Source: Ancylobacter crimeensis
GTDB lineage: Bacteria; Pseudomonadota; Alphaproteobacteria; Rhizobiales; Xanthobacteraceae
Reading direction: 5' to 3'
Length of the DNA stretch: 64,000 nucleotides
NCBI RefSeq assembly: GCF_023016805.1
Contig: NZ_JALKCH010000012.1
Location: forward strand, 62,001-126,000
In this document: one piece after another, positions 2,683-52,682 of the stretch
Numbering within the stretch: the stretch's first letter is position 1
How the letters are laid out: each line of letters opens with the position of its first letter
Position numbers and translations under genes: made by a program
Notes under the pieces: generated by a model
Told to the model about the DNA's origin: nothing
Database searches by the model: none
The model's input: only the letters and a program-made list of their open reading frames with translations

Positions 2683-3582
2683 TCACTGTTTGAAGCAGTG
2701 TTCTCGGTGCCATTGCAGGAAGTGCGGATGTGGCCGCTCGAACGCCTTTTTTGGCGCGATGGCGCGGCCGCTCCGGTTGACGAAGGCCCGCACGCCATCG
2801 GGGTCGTTGGCCTGCCGGGAGATGAGGATCTCCAGATCATCCGAGAGGCTGATCAGACCGCGATCGAACATCCAGTGCGCAGTGCCCGACAATGCCAGGC
2901 CGTTGCTGATGATGTCGGGTCCGTTCGCTTCCACCGGTCGGATATGGGCCGCAGCGACCTCGGCCCGTCCTCCGCCATTGATCAGCTTGAGCCCGCTGAT
3001 CGCACAGCGCTCGTCATAGGCGCGCAGCACCACCCGCCGGAAGATCCGATCCCGTACGATCCGCGATGAAAGGCTGCTGACGCGTTCCCGGGGTTGCTCG
3101 AATGTGAACGGTGCCTGCTCTTCATGAAAGCCGGCAATGGGCGCGTCATCGTCGACGCGCGGAAGCAACGGTTCGCTGTCATCCAGCCCGAGCCGGATGA
3201 TGCGATAGAAATCGTCCGGCGAGAGCGCGCGCACGGCGGCCTGTGCGCGACCTGAAATCCGCCCCTCTTCATTCAGCACGCCACGCTCGATGACACCATC
3301 CGCATCGCTGAACGGCACCGGATGGACGAAATCGAGATAGCTGCCGGGCTTGATCAGCGCCAGATACATGCCGGGCGCCGTCGGATCGGGCACCACACGT
3401 TCAACCTTGGCGATCGCGAAATAGCCGCGTGTCTCTGCGATCTTCCGTGGCTCGTAATAAACGATCCAGTCGCCGACACAGGCCTCGACCCGCCCGAGAT
3501 ACTGTGGTGGAAACTGATATCGCTCCGCCGGACTGTCATCGTAGATCGAGTCCGAGCGGTGAATGAAGACGCCGAATCCCAT
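2683..3582 (-). CDS. HNH endonuclease with N-terminal recognition-like domain
   Basis: A 299-residue protein. The start at 3582 (MGFGVF) is chosen because AAGGA lies six bases upstream; the frame is open for 33 more codons but those look non-coding. The C-terminal third has the HNH core: DERCAISG, then AAAHIRPVEANGPD, then NGLALSGTAHWMFDRGLI. The N-terminal half (FIHRSDSIYDD ... YLGRVEACVGDWIVYYEPRK ... FAIAKV) looks like a compact beta domain of the kind that reads modified bases in McrA-like enzymes, though that assignment is tentative. Known relatives are annotated as putative restriction endonucleases. It is divergent from the Fic gene across 173 bases and lies in an island, so a defence role is plausible but unproven. 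Confidence 0.85.
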   Translation of the reverse strand: MGFGVFIHRSDSIYDDSPAERYQFPPQYLGRVEACVGDWIVYYEPRKIAETRGYFAIAKVERVVPDPTAPGMYLALIKPGSYLDFVHPVPFSDADGVIERGVLNEEGRISGRAQAAVRALSPDDFYRIIRLGLDDSEPLLPRVDDDAPIAGFHEEQAPFTFEQPRERVSSLSSRIVRDRIFRRVVLRAYDERCAISGLKLINGGGRAEVAAAHIRPVEANGPDIISNGLALSGTAHWMFDRGLISLSDDLEILISRQANDPDGVRAFVNRSGRAIAPKKAFERPHPHFLQWHREHCFKQ

Positions 3583-3682
3583 GTCCCATCCTTGATCCGC
3601 GTCATCATATTGCGTTTTCGGCGCCAAGGAGGAGAAAGCTGCGCCCTTCGTTCCACAATGCACTTCGGCCCCGTAGGCCATG

Positions 3683-3756
3683 TGAGCGATAGGACGACTT
3701 TCTATAAATCATATATCTGCTAATATGCGAGCTATAGAGGAGGACTCTATCGCTCA
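3683..3756 (+). promoter_or_regulatory. AT-rich promoter region of the Fic gene with inverted repeats and an RBS hairpin
   Basis: The interval between the divergent HNH and Fic genes is unusually AT-rich for this genome (TATAAATCATATAT around 3703-3716). A 10-bp perfect inverted repeat, TGAGCGATAG at 3683-3692 and CTATCGCTCA at 3747-3756, brackets it and ends on the A of the Fic start codon. A second, tighter repeat, ATAGAG (3734-3739) and CTCTAT (3745-3750), encloses the GAGGAGGA ribosome-binding site in a five-base loop. This could be an operator, a translational hairpin, or both. No -35 box is convincing. Confidence 0.45.
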
Positions 3757-4877
3757 TGGCATGGAATTGGACGCAGCCCCATTGGCCGCACTTTACCTAT
3801 GATCCAGCCGCCCTTGAGTCGCTGGAGCGGCACTTCCTGCTGCTCTCCGGTGAGGTGATCGGCGCGGTCCGGCATGTAGGTGACGATGATCGCGACATGC
3901 TGCGGATCGAGCTTCTCAGCGAGGAGGCGGTCAAGACCAGTGCGATCGAGGGCGAGGCCCTGGATCGCATGAGTGTGCAATCCTCCCTGCGCCGGCAATT
4001 CGGCCTCGACACCGACAATCGCACCGTGAAGCCGAAGGAGCGCGGCATCGCGCAGATGATGGCTGATCTGTACCGGAGTTGGGCGAATCCGCTGGACGAC
4101 GATACCCTGTTCCGCTGGCACAGCATGTTGATGGCGGACAGCCGGCATCTGGAGACGATCGGCGGGTACCGCCATCATGAAGATGCGATGCAGATCGTAT
4201 CCGGCCGCTACGATCGACCGAGAGTGCATTTCGAGGCGCCACCCTCCTCCCGTGTTCCCGAGGAGATGACCGCCTATCTCGACTGGTTCAACCGCTCGGC
4301 ACCGAACGGTGGCACGCCGCTGCCCGCCCTCACTCGGGCCGGAATCGGGCATCTTTATTTCGAGAGCATCCACCCCTTCGAGGACGGCAACGGCCGGATT
4401 GGTCGCGCCGTCGCGGAAAAGTCCCTCGCGCAGAACATCGGCCAACCGACGCTGATCGCACTCGCCCATACCATCGAGCAGCACCGCAAGGCCTATTATG
4501 AACAGCTCGAGGTCCACCAGCGGACACTCGATATCACGGGGTGGCTGGCCTACTTCGCCGAGACGATCATCACAGCCCAGCGGACGACACTGGGCCGCGT
4601 CGCCTTCCACATCGCCAAGACGCACTTTTACGATCGCTTCCACGACAAAATGAACGACCGCCAGGAGAAGGTGATCGCCCGGCTATTCCGTGAAGGCCCC
4701 GGCGGATTCACGGGTGGCCTGAGCGCGGAGAACTACATCGCGATCACCGGCACTTCTCGTCCGACCGCCACGCGTGACCTGCACGATCTGGTCGAGAAAG
4801 GCGCCCTGACGCGAACCGGCGAGCGCCGATATACGCGCTATCGTCTGAGCCTGAGCGACATGGCTGGAAAGTCCTGA
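3756..4877 (+). CDS. Fic family protein (AMPylase type, self-inhibited)
   Basis: A 373-residue Fic-domain protein. The catalytic loop HPFEDGNGRIGR is at residues 206-217, matching the active HPFx[D/E]GNGRxxR motif in full, so AMP transfer to a target hydroxyl is expected. TSAIEG at residues 61-66 fits the inhibitory [S/T]xxxE[G/N] helix, placing it among class II (N-terminally self-inhibited) Fic proteins. The last 80 residues look like a winged helix (SRPTATRDLHDLVEKGAL), common in this subgroup. The start ATG follows GAGGAGGA. The target is unknown; in islands such proteins may be toxins, stress switches or regulators. No separate antitoxin gene is visible, consistent with the built-in inhibitory helix. 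Confidence 0.93.
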   Translation: MAWNWTQPHWPHFTYDPAALESLERHFLLLSGEVIGAVRHVGDDDRDMLRIELLSEEAVKTSAIEGEALDRMSVQSSLRRQFGLDTDNRTVKPKERGIAQMMADLYRSWANPLDDDTLFRWHSMLMADSRHLETIGGYRHHEDAMQIVSGRYDRPRVHFEAPPSSRVPEEMTAYLDWFNRSAPNGGTPLPALTRAGIGHLYFESIHPFEDGNGRIGRAVAEKSLAQNIGQPTLIALAHTIEQHRKAYYEQLEVHQRTLDITGWLAYFAETIITAQRTTLGRVAFHIAKTHFYDRFHDKMNDRQEKVIARLFREGPGGFTGGLSAENYIAITGTSRPTATRDLHDLVEKGALTRTGERRYTRYRLSLSDMAGKS

Positions 4878-5006
4878 GTTTGTGGACGGACGGAACAACA
4901 AGCAACGTCCGACCATTGCCTTGGACACACTGTGTATCATCTGGAGCAATCAACCAGTACAGGTTCGAGATAAACGTCGTGATCGCGTCCGGTTTTCACA
5001 ATCTCT

Positions 5007-5897
5007 TCATTCCCTTCCCGGCGTCCGCGCATCGGCGCCGACAGCCTCCATAACCGTGGCAAGCTCACCGGTCAGATCCTGATGATAGCGGTTCAGATAC
5101 CCCGATATCGCGTTGTTACGCAGCAGGCGGGCGACGAAGCCCTTCGCGACCACCAGCACCAGAAGCGTCTCGCCGAGCGTATCCTCGACCGCCTTGTAGT
5201 CCAGATAGAGCTTCTCCATCTGCCGCTCCATCCGGGCAATATCCTCCGGCGTCGCGTCGAGCTGGCGAGGCTTCTTCACTTCGATGAGCATGTCGGGCCG
5301 GGAGGCGGCAAGGATCATCTTCGCATAGGGCACGTTCAGCCGGCTGGCGGAAATCATCATCTCGGCCGCATCGATCTGGCGCAGCGGCTTCATCTTGCGC
5401 AGGATGGCGAACACGCCCCGGCTGACCATGCGGTCCTTCAGCAGTTCCACCGCTTCGGGCACGACGCCGTCGAGCAGCCGCTCGCGCTCCCGGATACGCT
5501 CGACATTGACGCTGAGCGTCTGGGCGATCCGTTCGGGCGGCACGCCCTTGCGGATCGCCTGCAGGATCATCTTGTGCTCCTGGATCGCGCTGAGACGGTT
5601 GATTTGACGGTTATAGGTGAAGCCCTCATCGTCGGTGGCGACGAGGCAGACCGCCTCCGTCGCCTCGAGCGCCTTCAACGCCTCCAGGCGCAGATGCCCG
5701 TCCAGCAGGATATAGCCCTTGCCGCCAGCGGGCTCGGGGTGGACGGCGAGCGGCTCGATGATGCCGACCTCCTGGATCGAGGCGAGGATCGTCCGGAATT
5801 TCGGCGTATCGCGGATATCCTTCGCCAAAGTGCGGGTCGGCAGAATGTCGCCGATCGCGACCCTCATCGTCTTCTTTTGAAAGGCGTGTCGCGTCAC
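5007..5897 (-). CDS. RepB/ParB-like protein, last gene of recombinase operon
   Basis: A 296-residue protein with a ParB N-terminal fold (IGDILPTRTLAKDIRDT ... GIIEPLAV ... LLDGHLRLEALKAL) followed by an HTH-containing middle (ERIAQTLSVNVERIRER) and the C-terminal domain typical of plasmid RepB proteins. In true ParB CTPases the phosphate motif is GERRxRA; here it is GHLRLEA, and the ENxxR position reads NRQINR, so CTP hydrolysis may be lost or altered. Its ATG overlaps the stop of the upstream ParB-like gene by four bases (ATGA), so the two are translationally coupled. No parA or repC is nearby, arguing against a plasmid partition locus. It probably acts with the serine recombinase, by inference from the operon. 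Confidence 0.85.
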   Translation of the reverse strand: MTRHAFQKKTMRVAIGDILPTRTLAKDIRDTPKFRTILASIQEVGIIEPLAVHPEPAGGKGYILLDGHLRLEALKALEATEAVCLVATDDEGFTYNRQINRLSAIQEHKMILQAIRKGVPPERIAQTLSVNVERIRERERLLDGVVPEAVELLKDRMVSRGVFAILRKMKPLRQIDAAEMMISASRLNVPYAKMILAASRPDMLIEVKKPRQLDATPEDIARMERQMEKLYLDYKAVEDTLGETLLVLVVAKGFVARLLRNNAISGYLNRYHQDLTGELATVMEAVGADARTPGRE

Positions 5898-6814
5898 GGC
5901 AGCACCTCCCCGCCGATCCGGTCTGCGAGCGGCTTCGGAATATCGCCGACGCTCTCAGCCCGCAGGAGGGTACGGAAATGCTCATCCGCGAGCATCCTTC
6001 TCAGCGCCGTCACGACGAACAGAAGCCGTTGTTCGGCGACCTCAGACTTGCGAACCACGAGCTGCTGCCGTCGGACCTCGGCCTGGAAGGTCTGTGCCAG
6101 CTTGCTCGCGGTGAGCGGCTGCTCACCCTTGCGCTTCCAAGAGCCGTAGGTCTTGCCGAGCGCCTGGCGCCGATCGATCAGCCGGCGAACCTTGAGAAGC
6201 TGCTCGCCGCGCAGGAGGCCGGTCTCATAGGCCTCCATCATGGCAATCTGCAGCTCGCCCGGGGCCGCCTTGGCGATATCGGTGGCCAGCGAGAGCGGCA
6301 GCCAGCCTTTCTCGACCGCACCGATCAGGCGTTCCTCGCCAGCCTTCAGCAGTTGTATGATGCAGGAGATGTATCCGGCATCGAGGCCGGTCTTGCGGGC
6401 GATTTCGGCCGGACCATAACCGCGATCCTCGAGCACGCGCACGGCCGTGAGCAGATCCCGGTTGGAGTGCTTCCGACGCGCCAGGTTTTCCACGAGGCTC
6501 ATCAGATAGAGCTCGGTTTCCGACGCCCGGACGACGAGAGCGGGTATCTGCGTCTCCCCCAGGGCCTTGAAGGCTTCCAGCCGGCCCTGTCCGCAGATGA
6601 GATCGTATCCCGGCTCGCTGCCTTCGCGCCGGCCCTCCGTGACGGTGATCGGCCGCTTGAGGCCGACTGTGGCGATGCTCTCGACGATTCCGGCGAAGAT
6701 CTTCGGACTCCGCGCCCGCGGATTGACGACGCGGACATTGTCGACCGGGATTGACCGGATCTCCTGTACGCCACCGACATGGTGAGGAACGTGTTCCTTC
6801 CGGTCTCGGGCCAT
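5894..6814 (-). CDS. ParB-like protein, middle gene of recombinase operon
   Basis: A 306-residue ParB/RepB-family protein. It has a ParB N-terminal domain (IPVDNVRVVNPRAR, GLKRPITVTEG, CGQGRLEAFKALGE) and an ENLARRKHSNRD box, then an HTH (GPAEIARKTGLDAGYISCIIQLL) that should bind DNA. The nucleotide motif is GQGRLEA instead of GERRxRA. The C-terminal half resembles RepB. Its start overlaps the recombinase stop by one base (TAATG) and its end overlaps the next gene as ATGA, so three proteins come from one message in fixed order. Two distinct ParB-like paralogues with no ParA suggest a DNA-bridging or accessory role for the recombinase rather than segregation. Confidence 0.85.
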   Translation of the reverse strand: MARDRKEHVPHHVGGVQEIRSIPVDNVRVVNPRARSPKIFAGIVESIATVGLKRPITVTEGRREGSEPGYDLICGQGRLEAFKALGETQIPALVVRASETELYLMSLVENLARRKHSNRDLLTAVRVLEDRGYGPAEIARKTGLDAGYISCIIQLLKAGEERLIGAVEKGWLPLSLATDIAKAAPGELQIAMMEAYETGLLRGEQLLKVRRLIDRRQALGKTYGSWKRKGEQPLTASKLAQTFQAEVRRQQLVVRKSEVAEQRLLFVVTALRRMLADEHFRTLLRAESVGDIPKPLADRIGGEVLP

Positions 6815-8373
6815 TACGCCACCTCCGCAAGAGGAACACGGCGCATCAGCTCGTAAAGCGCCTCAAGCGTCGCGAAACGAAACGTATCGAGACCCGCCTC
6901 ATTCCGCTCGGCGAGGCGGAGACGCGCGGCCATGCCGTCGAGCGACGGCAGCAGATAGTAATCGCGGACGGCTTCCTCGCCCGGCTCCATGCGCACCGCG
7001 ATGGTGATGTCGGGCGGCGCTGTTCCATCGAGATGGATCAGCCAGCGAAGCGATCCCGCCGCCGTTTGCGTGCAGCGGCACAGCAGCAGCGATGCGGTGA
7101 CCTCCTCATTGATGGTGAGAATCCCCGTTTCGGGATCGACGGCAACGGAGGCACCCGCCGCCCGCAGCGCCGCCAGCACCTCGTCGACCACCGTCGGATT
7201 GAGCAGCCGAAGCCGGCGGTTGCTCTCCACATAGGCGAAGTCGCGATCCGGCGCGTATCCCACCAGCGAATAGGTTCGCAGCAGGCTGCCGAACCGACTG
7301 CGATAAGCACTGCTCGACGGACAGCCAGACGCCTCGTCGATCATCAGGCCGGAGAGATAGCCGTGCTCGGCGAGCAGGCGCCGCAGCACATCCAGCATAT
7401 CGGCGTCGGAAAGCCTCGCCGACCTGCCGCGGATGATCGCCTGCGCTGCGTCGAACAGAAGGCGATCAACAATGGGCAGGAAGGCGCCCTCCGCTCTGAT
7501 CCACATGGACGGCTCGTTGCGGGTCCGCTTCCGCTTCAAGGCCGCAGTGCCGCGGTTCCAGACATTGTTGCCGATATACTTCTCGTTGATCAGCACCTGA
7601 TGGACCGTTCCGCGTGTCCAGGTGCGACCGAGATCCGTCCGGATGCCGTCCGCGTTCAGCATGGCGGCGACCTCGCCTTCGTTGCGGCCGTCCTCGACGA
7701 AGCTCCGATAGATGCGCCGCACTACCTCCACCTCATCCTGGGGGCCGGGGACGAGAACCACCCGATCGGTCTGGATGCTCTTGTGCTCGAGGCGCGCGAG
7801 CAGCGCCTTGCTGCGGCCGGCCTCATCGACGAGCTGCCGCCTCAGGCCGAAGCCGGCGGGACCACCCTGGCGAAAGCCCAACCTGATCAAACGGCACTGA
7901 CCGGCGAAGACCTTGACCGACAGGTCACGGCTGTATTCACCGGCCATCTTGCGCTTCAGCATCTTCTGGATGTCGGAGCCGAGACTGCCGTCGTTGTCGA
8001 AGGGCTCGGCGCAGTACTCGACCCGCACGCCGGCGCGGCGGCAGAGATATTCGTAATAGGCGCTCTCGTCGGCGTCCTGAAAACGCCCCCACCGGCTGAT
8101 GTCGTAGACGAGCACGATCTCGAAATCGGCGTGTCCGCCGGTGACGTCGGCGATCAGCTTCTGCAGGCCGGCGCGGCCATCGATGTTGAGGCCGCTCTTG
8201 CCCTCATCGGCATAGGTCCTGACGATCGTGCAGTTGTGGCGGGCCGCATAGTCACGGATGGCATCCGCCTGGTTCTCCGTCGAATAGCGCTGATGCTCGG
8301 TCGACATCCGCACGTACTGCGCGGCCCGAATCTGGGGAAGATCGGAAGAAGTCTCGTCGCGCGACTCTGTCAT
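6814..8373 (-). CDS. large serine recombinase
   Basis: A 519-residue recombinase. The resolvase domain starts AQYVRMSTEHQ with Arg22 and nucleophilic Ser24, and continues through YADEGKSGLNIDGR and LVYDISRWGR. A recombinase domain (PF07508 type; GGPAGFGLRR, then GTVHQVLINEKYIGNNVWN) follows to about residue 330. From about 350 on I see no Cys4 zinc ribbon or long coiled coil as in phage integrases; instead there is a block HGYLSGLMIDEASG ... SRFGSLLRTYSLVGY and an unfamiliar tail. It is the first gene of a three-gene operon with two ParB-like genes (TAATG junction) and divergent from an HTH gene across 109 bases. Whether it integrates, excises or inverts DNA cannot be told here. Confidence 0.9.
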   Translation of the reverse strand: MTESRDETSSDLPQIRAAQYVRMSTEHQRYSTENQADAIRDYAARHNCTIVRTYADEGKSGLNIDGRAGLQKLIADVTGGHADFEIVLVYDISRWGRFQDADESAYYEYLCRRAGVRVEYCAEPFDNDGSLGSDIQKMLKRKMAGEYSRDLSVKVFAGQCRLIRLGFRQGGPAGFGLRRQLVDEAGRSKALLARLEHKSIQTDRVVLVPGPQDEVEVVRRIYRSFVEDGRNEGEVAAMLNADGIRTDLGRTWTRGTVHQVLINEKYIGNNVWNRGTAALKRKRTRNEPSMWIRAEGAFLPIVDRLLFDAAQAIIRGRSARLSDADMLDVLRRLLAEHGYLSGLMIDEASGCPSSSAYRSRFGSLLRTYSLVGYAPDRDFAYVESNRRLRLLNPTVVDEVLAALRAAGASVAVDPETGILTINEEVTASLLLCRCTQTAAGSLRWLIHLDGTAPPDITIAVRMEPGEEAVRDYYLLPSLDGMAARLRLAERNEAGLDTFRFATLEALYELMRRVPLAEVA

Positions 8374-8482
8374 TGGCGGTCAATACCCGTCTTACCGGCG
8401 CGCCAAGCAATCGACCGTTGTGTTGACGTTCCTACGCCGGAAATCCTCTGCTTCTCTCAGTGTATCTCCACGGAGAAGAAGC

Positions 8483-9103
8483 ATGTTGCAGAAGAAGGGC
8501 AGATCATTGCCGCCGGGATCGGAGGGAGACGGCCCGCCCCGACGCTATGCCGAGATCGTCTCTCTCGCATTGAAGACGGAGCTCGACGACAGCCGCCGGA
8601 CGATCAAGACGGTTCAGCGCTGGACGAGGGCCAGTGAACGCACGGTCAAGAACTGGATTGCCGGCACCTGCGGCCCGGATGGAGATCATCTCATCGCGAT
8701 GCTCATCCACTCCGATACGATGCTGCACATGCTTCTGCTCGCCAGCCGGCGGTTCGATATTGTTGAGATGTTGATGAATCGCTCGGGATCGAGCGCCGAC
8801 GAGCACTCGGGAAAGCGGCCAGAGGATCGGAGTCCGCGTCGGAAAACCTCACTCCACCATTACCCTGGTCCCGACCCTATTGACGACCCTGAACTTGACC
8901 CTGATGAAGCGTTCGTTCCGAACGAGCGGCAACGCTGGTTCCTTGCCGAGCTCGCCAGCGGCAGGCGGGTCTCGGCCCGAGAGTTGCTGTCCCGGTTCGG
9001 CATCTCCGAGAAGACGGCCAAACGGGACATAGCCGGGCTAAAGGCAAATGCGTCGATTTCATTTACGGGGTCGAGGCGGAAAGGACGATATCGGCTACGG
9101 TGA
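8483..9103 (+). CDS. helix-turn-helix regulator divergent from the recombinase operon
   Basis: A 206-residue protein. The start at 8483 (MLQKKG) is set by GGAGAAGAAGC just upstream. The first half contains an HTH-like stretch (RTIKTVQRWTRASERTVKNWIAG); the middle is acidic and Pro-rich; the C-terminus is a winged helix resembling DeoR-type domains (RQRWFLAELASGRRVSARELLSRFGISEKTAKRDIAGL). Two DNA-binding modules in one small protein fit a transcriptional switch for the adjacent, divergent recombinase-ParB-ParB operon, sharing the 109-base gap. That is inference from position. It ends shortly before insertion-sequence remnants. Confidence 0.75.
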   Translation: MLQKKGRSLPPGSEGDGPPRRYAEIVSLALKTELDDSRRTIKTVQRWTRASERTVKNWIAGTCGPDGDHLIAMLIHSDTMLHMLLLASRRFDIVEMLMNRSGSSADEHSGKRPEDRSPRRKTSLHHYPGPDPIDDPELDPDEAFVPNERQRWFLAELASGRRVSARELLSRFGISEKTAKRDIAGLKANASISFTGSRRKGRYRLR

Positions 9104-9141
9104 CCGCATGCGTAAATTGCGGCGCCTAGAACATTTTCCGA

Positions 9142-9210
9142 TCAGGTTGCATCATATCCTGCGGCATTGAAGTAGTTGCGGCATTCGGCTGGCTCGAAAA
9201 TGTCGATAAG
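9142..9210 (-). pseudogene. IS630-family transposase, 3' end remnant
   Basis: On the minus strand the last 22 codons before TGA read [19 protein letters not shown] and then DAT, the usual C-terminus of IS630-family transposases. Nothing else of that element is recognisable. The fragment is fused in space to a truncated IS3-type element, marking a deletion or insertion junction somewhere between about 9210 and 9275. Confidence 0.65.
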
Positions 9211-9274
9211 TTGTTGATTTCCGCTGAGATCTGACCCGGCAGGAGCGGATTTTTCCATCGAGAAGTGACCCATG

Positions 9275-9820
9275 TTTTACCGCGGCGCCAGATCGCCATG
9301 ATGAGGGCATCGGCGACGAGTTGTGCCGTCATCTCCGCCTTCATTGCCCAGCCGACGACACGTCGTGAGAACAGGTCGACGACGGCGGCAACGTAGAGCC
9401 AGCCCGCCGCAGTCCAGATGTAGGTGAAGTCCGCCACCCATTTCTGGTTGGAGCCGAGGCCTCGAAGGCGCGGTCGAGCAGTTTGTCCAACGCGGCGGCC
9501 CGCACGCCGACATCCTTCGGCAGACGACGGCGCGGCCGAGCCCGCAATCCATGCTCCCGCATGATCCGTTCGACTCGATGCAGGCCGCAGGAGAGCCCTT
9601 CCGCCAGCATATCGTGCCAGACGCGTCGTGCGCCATAGGTTCGATCGCTGCTCTTGAAGCTGCGGTCGATCACCGTCGCGAGCACGTCATCGTGCCGGGC
9701 ATGCGCACTCGGGCTGCGGTTGAGCCAGGCATGAAAGCCTGATCGGGAGACATCCAAAGCGTTGCATAGCCAAGCCAACGGCCAGATGCTCCGGTGCTTC
9801 GCGATGAAGGCGAACCTCAT
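9275..9820 (-). pseudogene. IS3-family transposase orfB, frameshifted and 3'-truncated
   Basis: The start overlaps orfA as ATGA. The first part reads FAFIAKHRSIWPLAWLCNAL, with SGFHAWLNRSPSAHA and [15 protein letters not shown], typical of IS3 orfB (HTH_21 then the rve integrase core). Near 9440-9460 the frame breaks and the core resumes in another frame as [20 protein letters not shown], holding the first catalytic Asp. The protein then stops matching after IWRRGK, so the second Asp and the Glu of the DDE triad are absent. Frameshift plus truncation make it non-functional. Confidence 0.85.
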
Positions 9821-10107
9821 GTCGCTTCCATGGCGAAGAAGGCTGCGGCCTTTTTTAGGATGTCGCGCTCCGCTTTCAGCTTGGCCAATTCCCTGCGCAG
9901 CCGGTCAATCTCAAGCTGCTCGGGCTTCATCTGACCTTGTCCGGGAAAGGCATGCTGAGGATCAATCTTCGCCTCGCGGATCCATTTACGCAGCACGTTC
10001 TCGTGGACATCCAGGTCGCGGACAGCCTGCGCAACGGCAACGCCCCGATCCTTCACTAACCTCATAGCCTCAAGCTTGAACGCGCGGCTGAACCTCCGTC
10101 GTTGCAT
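9817..10107 (-). CDS. IS3-family transposase orfA
   Basis: A 96-residue HTH_8-type protein: RRRFSRAFKLEAMRLV, an HTH (VAQAVRDLDVHENVLRKWIREA), and a leucine-zipper segment (LEIDRLRRELAKLKAERDIL). Intact orfA normally binds the element's ends. A run of six A plus G within KKAAAFF (complement of 9850-9856) is positioned for -1 frameshifting, and the new frame is open into orfB. With orfB broken it may persist only as a DNA-binding or inhibitory protein. Confidence 0.9.
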   Translation of the reverse strand: MQRRRFSRAFKLEAMRLVKDRGVAVAQAVRDLDVHENVLRKWIREAKIDPQHAFPGQGQMKPEQLEIDRLRRELAKLKAERDILKKAAAFFAMEAT

Positions 10108-10440: not shown

Positions 10441-12147
10441 TCACATAAAAGATTTCAGGTCGAGCCCGTCGTAATGCAGGCGCTCGACAGCTTCCTTGAG
10501 GGCTTCCACAGACACGCCGTGCACGTAAACCGCGCCGGCGGTGTTATCGCTATGCCCGCAAAGCTGATCCATCACGCCACGCTCAACGCCGGCCATTGAA
10601 AGGCCGGTCTTGAAGGTATGGCGGAAGCTGTAGAAGTCCTTGCGCGGATCGGCGATGCCGGCGTTTTTCTTATAGGTGACGTTGAACCGCCGGGGGATGA
10701 AGCGCGGGAAATAGTGGTTGAGCACGGTCTTGCTTTTGGCCGTGGCCTCGGCTTTCGCCGTCATCCCGTCCTCATACCATTTCGGAAAGAGGTGCGTTTC
10801 CTTGGTCTGGCGCAGGCGCTCCACATATTGCTCAAAGCCGAGGGCGATCAGGGTGGAATGCACCGGCACGATGCGCCGGCTTCCCTCGGTCTTGGTTTCT
10901 TCCTCTACCGTCAGGCAGAGCACGCCGCGCTGATGGATGACGGAATCAAGCCGCATTTGCGCGCTTTCGGATGGGCGCAGGCCGGCAAAGAGGCCGATAA
11001 GCATCGCCCATTGCGTCTCACCAAGCCGGCCGGTCGGGGCAAACAGGCGAGGGGCAAAGAGCTTTGTCAGGTCGCCGGGGTTGAAGTGCACACGTGGCGG
11101 CGCCTTCACCTTGCCGCCCGTGATCTCGGCACGCACGCCGGTCGCCGGGTTGTCGGGGATAATGTCCTGCCGCATGGCCCAATTCAGAAGGCCCGTCAGC
11201 CGCATCAGGGTCTTGTCGTTGATGGTCTTTGGGTCGAGGCAGTCATAGGGTTGTGCGCGCTTCTTGTTCGCCTCGATGGCTTCCGGCAGTGTCATGTCCT
11301 TAAAGCGTTTGGTCGCGCTTGAGGGCGTTTCAAGCAGGCGGTCCTTGAAGCGCTGAACGTGGCGTCGGGTGATCTCGTAAACGGCCGGCACAGGGTCAAC
11401 CAATTCCTCGAACTGGCGCGCCATCACCTCATATTCCCGCGCCGTAGCCGGGGAGGGCTGGCGCTCACGTATCAGGCGCGGCACCAGCTCGCTAAGCGTC
11501 TTCGTTGAATCTGCTGAAAGGATGCGTGCCGATGTCGCCTTGTCCGGTGCAGGTTGCGCTGGCTGGGCAATGAGGTTGGCCGGTATTGGCGGATCGGGTT
11601 CCCCCTCGTCACGCGACATCTCAGTGTCGATTGCAACCAGCTCGGCTTGAGCGAGCAACCGAAGGGTTGCACCTTCATTCTTGAGATTGCCCGTAGCGCG
11701 CGCATGGTCGAGCGCGAAGGCAAGGGAGGCTGGCAGGATGGCCGGACGCTTCCCGGCGACAATCTGCCGAAGCTGGTCGATATGATCGTGGTCGGGATAG
11801 CCGAGGCCAGCCAGCGGATGCCCGCTATTGCGTACTTCGTCGTCGAGCTTGAGCCGGGATTGCAGGAATGGAGCGGCGATCTCGACAGGCTCAAGCTGCC
11901 GTCGCGGGGAGGGCTTCGGCCGATAGGTCGGCTTTTGCTGCGTGCCGAGCTGCCGCTTGGCGATGGCGATTTCCTCTTTCATCCCGGCGATGGCGGCGGG
12001 GAGGCGGTCGAGTGCCGCAGTCCGATCCGCGCCGAGGGGCGCTACAAATTCCTTCCTGCCGAGGATGGGTTGAAGCGCCTTATGGATCGAAAGCCGGGCG
12101 TAATATCGTCCGTCCTTGAACTGCAAATTCCGCGTCTTGCTCGCCAT
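10441..12147 (-). CDS. tyrosine-type site-specific integrase
   Basis: A 568-residue integrase when started at 12147 (MASKTRNLQFKDGRYYARL); the frame is open for 21 more codons, but these derive from a GGGAGAA tandem repeat and look non-coding. The N-terminus resembles the DUF6538 domain of alphaproteobacterial integrases (RYYARLSIHKALQPILGRKEF). A core-binding SAM-like segment lies mid-protein (LIRERQPSPATAREYEVMARQF). The catalytic domain has IGLFAGLRPSESAQ (Arg I), SFRHTFKTGL (RHxxK/R region) and GHSDNTAGAVYVHG near the nucleophile. It lies next to a tRNA-like CCA hairpin and tandem 12-mers, the expected place for an attachment site, and its 3' side leads into a portal fragment. Likely the integrase of the prophage-like island. 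Confidence 0.93.
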   Translation of the reverse strand: MASKTRNLQFKDGRYYARLSIHKALQPILGRKEFVAPLGADRTAALDRLPAAIAGMKEEIAIAKRQLGTQQKPTYRPKPSPRRQLEPVEIAAPFLQSRLKLDDEVRNSGHPLAGLGYPDHDHIDQLRQIVAGKRPAILPASLAFALDHARATGNLKNEGATLRLLAQAELVAIDTEMSRDEGEPDPPIPANLIAQPAQPAPDKATSARILSADSTKTLSELVPRLIRERQPSPATAREYEVMARQFEELVDPVPAVYEITRRHVQRFKDRLLETPSSATKRFKDMTLPEAIEANKKRAQPYDCLDPKTINDKTLMRLTGLLNWAMRQDIIPDNPATGVRAEITGGKVKAPPRVHFNPGDLTKLFAPRLFAPTGRLGETQWAMLIGLFAGLRPSESAQMRLDSVIHQRGVLCLTVEEETKTEGSRRIVPVHSTLIALGFEQYVERLRQTKETHLFPKWYEDGMTAKAEATAKSKTVLNHYFPRFIPRRFNVTYKKNAGIADPRKDFYSFRHTFKTGLSMAGVERGVMDQLCGHSDNTAGAVYVHGVSVEALKEAVERLHYDGLDLKSFM

Positions 12148-12159
12148 GGCGCTTCCAAA

Positions 12160-12195
12160 ATTCCGGGAGAAATTCCGGGAGAAGCTAAGGGAGAA
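12160..12195. repeat. three tandem 12-mers ending GGGAGAA
   Basis: ATTCCGGGAGAA occurs twice in tandem (12160-12171, 12172-12183), followed by the related GCTAAGGGAGAA (12184-12195). The array lies between the integrase start and the putative attachment hairpin, where arm-type integrase or excisionase sites are usually found. Function is inferred from position and spacing (12 bp, a little over one helical turn). Confidence 0.6.
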
Positions 12196-12234
12196 ACCTC
12201 GTGAGTGCAAGGTTTTGCGGAGATTTCAAAGACT

Positions 12235-52294: not shown

Positions 52295-52682
52295 GCGCAA
52301 CCGGACGGTGTCTACGAACCGCGAGCATAGAGCGTTTTTGCGCACGGGACTCGCCTGCCTTGTCACGGCCCACCCTTGTCGCTGCCGTTCCGGCACGCTA
52401 CATAGAGATACCCGATCCGGGCCCCTCTGACGCGAGCCGCGCCGGCGTTCGCGTGATGTCGGATCCTTTCCGATGTCATGCGCCGGCAGAAAAGGCTGCT
52501 TCGTGTCCACCCGTCCGACCGTCTTTCCGGGCTCCCTGCGTGCCCCGGCCCTGACTCATGACCCCTTTCTGCGGTTCGCACCGCGCGCGGCGACACCTTT
52601 GCATGCGCGTGCAGCGGCTGCGCATCGCCCGGTCGCGCCGCGTCCCGTCCTGCCTGCCACCATCACCCCGGCGGAGTGATCG

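What the first reader, a model, noticed from the sequence alone, without database searches (positions are those of the whole stretch)
5007..9103. Serine recombinase translationally coupled to two ParB/RepB-like proteins, with a divergent HTH gene
Seen: a 519-residue serine recombinase, a ParB-like and a RepB-like protein joined by TAATG and ATGA overlaps, and a two-HTH regulator divergent across 109 bases. Known: ParB/RepB proteins normally work with ParA/RepA in partition; none is present here. Inference: the two ParB-like proteins may form a nucleoprotein complex that positions or regulates the recombinase, so the four genes would be one recombination module. This is the window's best candidate for an undescribed system.
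Basis: partly seen in the sequence, partly recalled or inferred. Interest (0 to 1): 0.72.

Follow-up and report, generated by a model that had tools for sequence, protein, structure and literature searches.

The report
Recombinase operon with two ParB-like partners
This is a compact gene set, found in very many bacteria and their mobile DNA, in which a DNA-cutting-and-joining enzyme is nearly always encoded together with two proteins of a family best known for sorting chromosomes, and many of its relatives also carry a folded RNA that the RNA catalogue searched here does not list.

Summary
A serine recombinase with intact catalytic residues (RecS), a ParB (ParB1) and a RepB-like protein (RepB2) form an operon of overlapping genes, with a divergent HTH gene. 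Among loci found through RepB2, the trio is in fixed order in 69 of 73 testable genome loci, 43 of 45 viral loci and 7 of 9 fetched plasmid loci. RecS relatives number at least 7,955 90%-clusters. Partition is unlikely: ParA was found in 0 of 36 viral records carrying module genes. RecS is usually not the carrier's only integrase: at least 24 of those 36 hold another. The set looks like a self-contained accessory unit of prophages, islands and plasmids. Between close relatives, shared DNA often stops at the RepB2 stop codon (the window's at base 5007).

Many relatives carry, just after RepB2, a ~119-nt RNA with strong covariation and no Rfam match; there, shared DNA runs to the RNA's end or beyond. 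The window's copy lacks it.

Best reading: two ParB-fold proteins bind DNA and control a serine recombinase that lacks the usual zinc ribbon. Site and job are undemonstrated. Ten paper searches found no description.

The parts
6814..8373 (-). RecS: large serine recombinase; catalytic-type residues Y20, R22, S24, D91, R94, R97; Recombinase domain; C-terminal ~200 aa without a zinc-ribbon match
   Evidence: Pfam PF00239 + PF07508; these residues invariant in 50 aligned relatives; AF2 model matches serine integrases over about 320 columns, TMq 0.43 at best
5894..6814 (-). ParB1: ParB/Noc-type protein with RepB C-terminal domain
   Evidence: PF02195 + PF07506; profile matches Spo0J, Noc and ParB structures
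5007..5897 (-). RepB2: divergent ParB-fold protein with RepB C-terminal domain
   Evidence: PF07506; AF2 model matches ParB, Noc and KorB structures, TMq about 0.3
8420..9103 (+). divergent HTH regulator (in-frame ATG near 8483)
   Evidence: HTH_11; divergent homologue detected in 69 of 134 modules
5007..9129 (.). block shared at 88-89% with pXAUT01 (L019) and Kaistia hirudinis (L062); right edge = RepB2 stop codon; left edge at 9129, where IS3-like ORFs begin (named by eye)

Best explanation
It is a self-contained, horizontally moving operon: regulator | RecS - ParB1 - RepB2, plus a structured RNA in many relatives. Mobile elements carry it as an accessory unit. Shown: trio order and coupling, intact catalytic residues, no ParA partner in the records tested, low copy number in the genomes tested, block-wise sharing between different contexts. 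Inferred: ParB1 and RepB2 load on DNA as nucleotide-dependent ParB-type clamps, recruit or gate RecS, and supply the site recognition and direction control that ordinary large serine integrases obtain from a zinc ribbon, coiled coil and directionality factor. The operon would thus carry out regulated site-specific recombination (integration, excision or exchange) of the element or cargo next to it.
For: Fixed order in 69 of 73 genome, 43 of 45 viral and 7 of 9 plasmid loci with enough upstream DNA (the genome loci are the best 80 of at least 563). Coupling conserved. Catalytic-type residues invariant in 50 sequences. RecS folds like large serine integrases over about 320 columns, and the best PDB sequence stretches end at profile position 317 of 511. 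ParB1 and RepB2 resemble ParB/Noc proteins. PF13614 (ParA) in 0 of 36 viral records. Of 61 genomes, 6 have a near-full-length RecS: five have one copy (one of these with a stop inside), the window's own has two, so not IS-like amplification. Shared DNA between relatives often stops at the unit's edge.
Against: No att or res site was found. At least 24 of 36 viral records carrying module genes hold another integrase, so mobility of the carrier need not depend on RecS. Neighbours are heterogeneous and there is no fixed cargo. In 13 of 27 RNA-less pairs and 5 of 29 RNA-bearing pairs the shared DNA runs more than 250 bp past RepB2. No complex between RecS and the ParB-like proteins was tested. Deposited phages almost never carry it (1 of 50,697 records). 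The structural matches have low whole-chain TM-scores.
Confidence: 0.45

Rival explanations
1. Anti-phage or anti-plasmid defence unit of mobile elements: the ParB-like proteins recognise incoming DNA and RecS cuts or rearranges it.
For: The module sits as cargo near prophage and island ends, where defence genes gather (recalled); in 11 of 36 viral records a second serine recombinase lies about 40 kb or more away, towards the far end. Neighbours include Fic and HNH genes (window), AbiEii (L062), Abi_2 (own C23 stretch), and R-M and Abi genes in annotated plasmids. PADLOC models hit by 100 nearest neighbours: 111, against 28 for 100 far ORFs.
Against: RecS, ParB1 and RepB2 match no PADLOC model. 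The PADLOC tallies count models, not proteins, and are swollen by redundant models; the commonest near model hit 3 of 100. A catalytically conserved recombinase is an unusual effector.
Confidence: 0.25
2. Stabilisation unit: RecS resolves dimers or tandem copies of the carrier while the ParB-like proteins act as clamps, comparable to resolvase-plus-par loci of plasmids (recalled).
For: Relatives on plasmids (99 of 72,556 records) and ParB-fold partners. ParB1 also matches KorB of RK2.
Against: Many chromosomal and prophage contexts; no ParA in 36 viral records; no res-like repeats seen upstream of RecS in the modules printed (by eye); RecS is integrase-like, not resolvase-sized.
Confidence: 0.13
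3. RecS is the integrase of the island or phage that carries it, acting at tRNA genes.
For: The own-genome C23 copy lies 186 bp from the 3' end of tRNA-Leu, and the 3' half of that tRNA recurs 39 kb away. G117 has a 97-bp direct repeat near its ends beside tRNA-Ser, with the module 2.7 kb inside. Twelve of 36 viral records show no second integrase, apart from partial resolvase pieces in G111 and G123.
Against: 24 of 36 records have another integrase. The C23 partial tRNA overlaps the end of another, truncated zinc-ribbon serine recombinase. Few loci have a tRNA near: within about 1.1 kb of the RepB2 side in 2 of 60 and 0 of 59 scanned loci.
Confidence: 0.12
4. A small transposon of about 4 kb in its own right.
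For: Sharp block edges; two copies of 91.8% identity over 8.1 kb in genome G087, one edge at the HTH gene's end; imperfect 16-bp inverted repeats near the ends of the Pseudomonas block in L020 and L070.
Against: Low copy number; no paired terminal repeats at the block ends in the window clade; left edges vary.
Confidence: 0.05

Closest known systems
Large serine integrases with directionality factors (SPbeta YokA with YotN, phiC31, Bxb1; PDB hits)
   Same: NTD catalytic and recombinase domains; an accessory protein modulates recombination in those systems (recalled)
   Different: RecS has no zinc-ribbon match in Pfam and its C-terminal half has no PDB sequence match; its near-constant partners are two ParB-fold proteins
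ParABS / RepABC partition
   Same: ParB_N and RepB (PF07506) domains
   Different: No ParA/RepA partner in the 36 viral records tested; the constant partner is a recombinase
Orphan ParB-CTPase-fold proteins on mobile elements (PMC12704722; passages read)
   Same: ParB fold outside parAB, linked to mobile DNA
   Different: The words recombinase, integrase and RepB do not occur in that paper's held main text; here the coupling to a recombinase is nearly constant
IS110 bridge RNA or other RNA-guided mobile systems (recalled, no call)
   Same: A structured RNA encoded beside a recombinase gene in many relatives
   Different: Serine-recombinase fold; the RNA is highly conserved and shows no obvious variable guide

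Membership tests
ParABS/RepABC partition system | ParA/RepA ATPase gene beside parB | tested here: not met
   PF13614 in 0 of 36 viral records carrying module genes, while the search rang in 14 of 14 control genomes. No feature named ParA in the eight annotated plasmid stretches shown, whose gene tables are incomplete
ParABS/RepABC partition system | ParB-fold DNA-binding protein | tested here: met
   Fold and domains only; DNA binding itself not testable here
Large serine integrase | Resolvase NTD with catalytic serine and arginines, plus Recombinase domain | tested here: met
Large serine integrase | Zinc-ribbon/coiled-coil C-terminal DNA-binding part | tested here: not met
   No Zn_ribbon_recom hit; best PDB sequence stretches end at profile position 317 of 511
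Large serine integrase | Adjacent att site and role in the element's integration | tested here: inconclusive
IS/transposon | Terminal repeats and multiple copies | tested here: not met
   the Pseudomonas block in L020 and L070 shows possible inverted ends, and G087 has two copies
Known anti-phage defence system (PADLOC) | Match to a defence model | tested here: not met
   RecS, ParB1 and RepB2: 0 families; HTH: a WYL-regulator hit at E 1.1e-6
Known structured RNA (Rfam 15) | Match to a family | tested here: not met
   RNA of L132: best E 6.4, 15.4 bits against a cut-off of 49; L110 and L190: none at gathering score

The most novel reading that the evidence does not exclude
The conserved ~119-nt RNA is a working part of the complex: RecS, ParB1 and RepB2 act as a ribonucleoprotein. 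This would be the first serine-recombinase system with a dedicated RNA subunit, which the window's clade, the Pseudomonas clade and the main Burkholderiales clades have lost or replaced.
Probability: 0.13. Interest if true: 0.95.

Novelty: new variant of a known kind. Interest (0 to 1): 0.66.

Why it matters
RecS relatives fill thousands of protein clusters, and public records name the parts 'recombinase family protein' and 'plasmid partitioning protein RepB C-terminal domain', so the operon is partly read as plasmid partition. If the ParB-fold proteins steer the recombinase, this would be a new way to control site-specific recombination and a new use of ParB clamps, and it could yield regulated recombinases. 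The linked RNA, absent from Rfam 15, makes the question directly testable in RNA-carrying relatives.

Tried and rejected
Partition system: rejected, no ParA. Phage integrase in general: rejected, another integrase in 24 of 36 records. Plain IS: rejected. Guide-like variable segment in the RNA: none obvious by eye in A4; not pursued. RNA in the window: searched with the model, filters off, over 4000-9200; best 9.1 bits, chance level. A divergent RNA in the own C23 copy looked possible by eye, but the model gave E 0.25, so it is not claimed. The FastTree label count of 13 changes includes one row, L027, labelled 'no' although its full locus L225 carries the RNA. L101 (a Verrucomicrobiales MAG) and L103 (a Nitrospinaceae MAG) are 99.3% identical over 3.3 kb, so at least one of these bins is doubtful. 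Papers: ten searches found no description; PMC12704722 was read in passages only, the rest only as listings.

Full report
Observation. The window holds, on the minus strand, recS (6814-8373), parB1 (5894-6814) and repB2 (5007-5897), and divergently an HTH gene (8420-9103). Pfam gives Resolvase + Recombinase, ParB_N + RepB, RepB, and HTH_11.

Recurrence. Where at least 2.9 kb upstream was held, ParB1 lies next door in 72 of 73 genome loci, 45 of 45 viral loci and 9 of 9 fetched plasmid loci, and RecS before it in 69, 43 and 7. The misses are L073, L078, L082 and L122 (genome), L208 and L215 (viral), and L059 and L060, Sinorhizobium plasmids with broken copies. The kept genome loci are titled as Alpha-, Beta- and Gammaproteobacteria, Acidobacteriota, Planctomycetota, Nitrospinota and Verrucomicrobia; the last two rest on MAG contigs that are 99.3% identical to each other over 3.3 kb, so at least one bin is doubtful. 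RecS relatives number at least 7,955 clusters at E <= 1e-100 among 8,000 scored. Coupling offsets are -3 or 0 in 111 and 93 of 136. The window's genome has a second full copy on contig 23 and a degraded one on contig 19.

Proteins. Y20, R22, S24, D91, R94 and R97 of RecS are invariant in 50 sequences; that they are the catalytic set is recalled knowledge of the family. The AF2 model (pLDDT 82, pTM 0.56) matches large serine integrases such as those of SPbeta, Bxb1 and phiC31 (TMq at most 0.43, about 320 columns). The C-terminal ~200 residues have no Pfam zinc ribbon, and the best PDB sequence stretches end at profile position 317 of 511. ParB1 matches Spo0J, Noc and KorB. RepB2's model (pLDDT 84) matches ParB, Noc and KorB (TMq about 0.3).

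Not partition, usually not the only integrase. Of the viral loci, 36 records were searched. ParA (PF13614) was found in 0 of 36, with 14 of 14 controls ringing. A tyrosine integrase is present in 12. A further serine recombinase other than RecS is present in 12 others; in 11 of them it lies about 40 kb or more from the module (G109, G110, G117, G118, G122, G129, G131-G135), and in G106 it is adjacent. The other 12 show none, apart from partial pieces in G111 and G123. These records may be fragments. Among 100 nearest neighbour ORFs of genome loci, 5 hit Phage_integrase and 3 Resolvase, with no common partner; among 100 far ORFs, 2 hit Phage_integrase.

tRNA leads. The contig-23 copy lies 186 bp from tRNA-Leu, whose 3' half recurs 39 kb on with 2 mismatches in 22; but that partial copy overlaps another, truncated zinc-ribbon serine recombinase. 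Of the 20 larger ORFs scanned there, none matched a tyrosine integrase. G117 has a 97-bp, 90.7% direct repeat near both ends beside tRNA-Ser, with the module inside. These fit an integrase role in some carriers and do not prove it.

Unit boundaries. Window and pXAUT01 align in one piece, 5007 to 9129, ending at the RepB2 stop codon; on the other side IS3-like ORFs begin at about 9126 (named by eye, not scanned). Over 56 pairs of related modules (78% identity or more) with flank on the RepB2 side, the right edge depends on the RNA. Without RNA: 13 of 27 pairs end within 40 bp of the RepB2 stop, 1 within 250 bp, 13 further out; by cluster, 6 of 11 end at the stop, and the Pseudomonas cluster ends at +630 or beyond. 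With RNA: 0 of 29 end at the stop, 24 end at +121 to +219, at the RNA's 3' end or up to about 80 bp past it, and 5 further out; 17 of the 24 come from one cluster of eight viral contigs, and by cluster 2 of 5 lie wholly in that range, one mostly, two not. Left edges vary.

The RNA. Immediately 3' of RepB2, same strand, a ~119-nt element was seen in 46 of 146 modules by sequence profile, duplicates included, or 37 of 127 after removing them. A covariance model found it in 2 of 24, 18 of 80 and 37 of 78 searched sources, each just after RepB2; other matches there scored 17.7 bits or less. It was found in 2 of 101 genomes, the window's own being without: beside the module in G021 and beside both copies in G087. 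Of 26 pairs, 15 change on both sides (6.3 in shuffles); 97.5% of cells pair, against 89.6% in shuffles and at most 44.1% in slid controls. G-U pairs suggest RNA rather than folded DNA (inference). Rfam has no match. On the tree RNA-bearing rows occur in several lineages, while the window's clade lacks it (FastTree, approximate); early presence with repeated loss is an inference. The window has none.

Judgement. Shown: a conserved, coupled recombinase/ParB/RepB unit that recurs in different contexts, without ParA in the records tested, with an optional structured RNA. Inferred: ParB-type clamps control RecS. Unknown: the site, the reaction, the benefit. Ten library searches (listed under Tried and rejected) found no description; most subscription journals are outside that library.

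Noticed in passing
L132:10892-11010, L110:10892-11012, L024:8889-9007 and others: Conserved structured RNA (model R1/R2) just 3' of repB2 in many relatives, no Rfam match; followed by terminator-like hairpins in some (by eye).
   Followed up: partly
window 9126-10107: IS3-like transposase ORFs (named by eye, not scanned) next to the HTH gene; the block shared with L019 and L062 ends here.
   Followed up: partly
window 10441-12210: Tyrosine recombinase (Phage_integrase) close to the module, as in several relatives.
   Followed up: partly
window 2683-4877: HNH protein resembling a phosphorothioate-DNA restriction enzyme model (below its cut-off) and a Fic protein (SoFic-like) beside repB2; a Fic gene also flanks the module in L190.
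   Followed up: no
window 52409-52471: terC RNA element (Rfam RF03067).
   Followed up: no
L226:8113-8198 and L234 about 1465-1521: 39-kb stretch of the window's genome bounded by tRNA-Leu and a partial tRNA-Leu copy, holding a second module, an Abi_2 gene, Radical SAM genes and pilin-like (N_methyl) genes.
   Followed up: partly
L127 about 5645, L130 about 5391, L116 about 1577: Three Burkholderia/Paraburkholderia flanks cease to match at about the same base after a stretch with several TGTGGATAA (DnaA-box-like, recalled) motifs; EutB lies upstream in L127.
   Followed up: no
L059, L060: Sinorhizobium plasmids hold several broken ParB1/RepB2 pieces without a RecS match.
   Followed up: no
L020, L070 (about -722 and +672 of the module): Imperfect 16-bp inverted repeats near the two ends of a 4.7-kb block shared by Pseudomonas modules; they may be ordinary Pseudomonas repeats.
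   Followed up: no
L101 and L103: Near-identical module contigs binned as Verrucomicrobiales and Nitrospinaceae; a binning error is likely in at least one.
   Followed up: no
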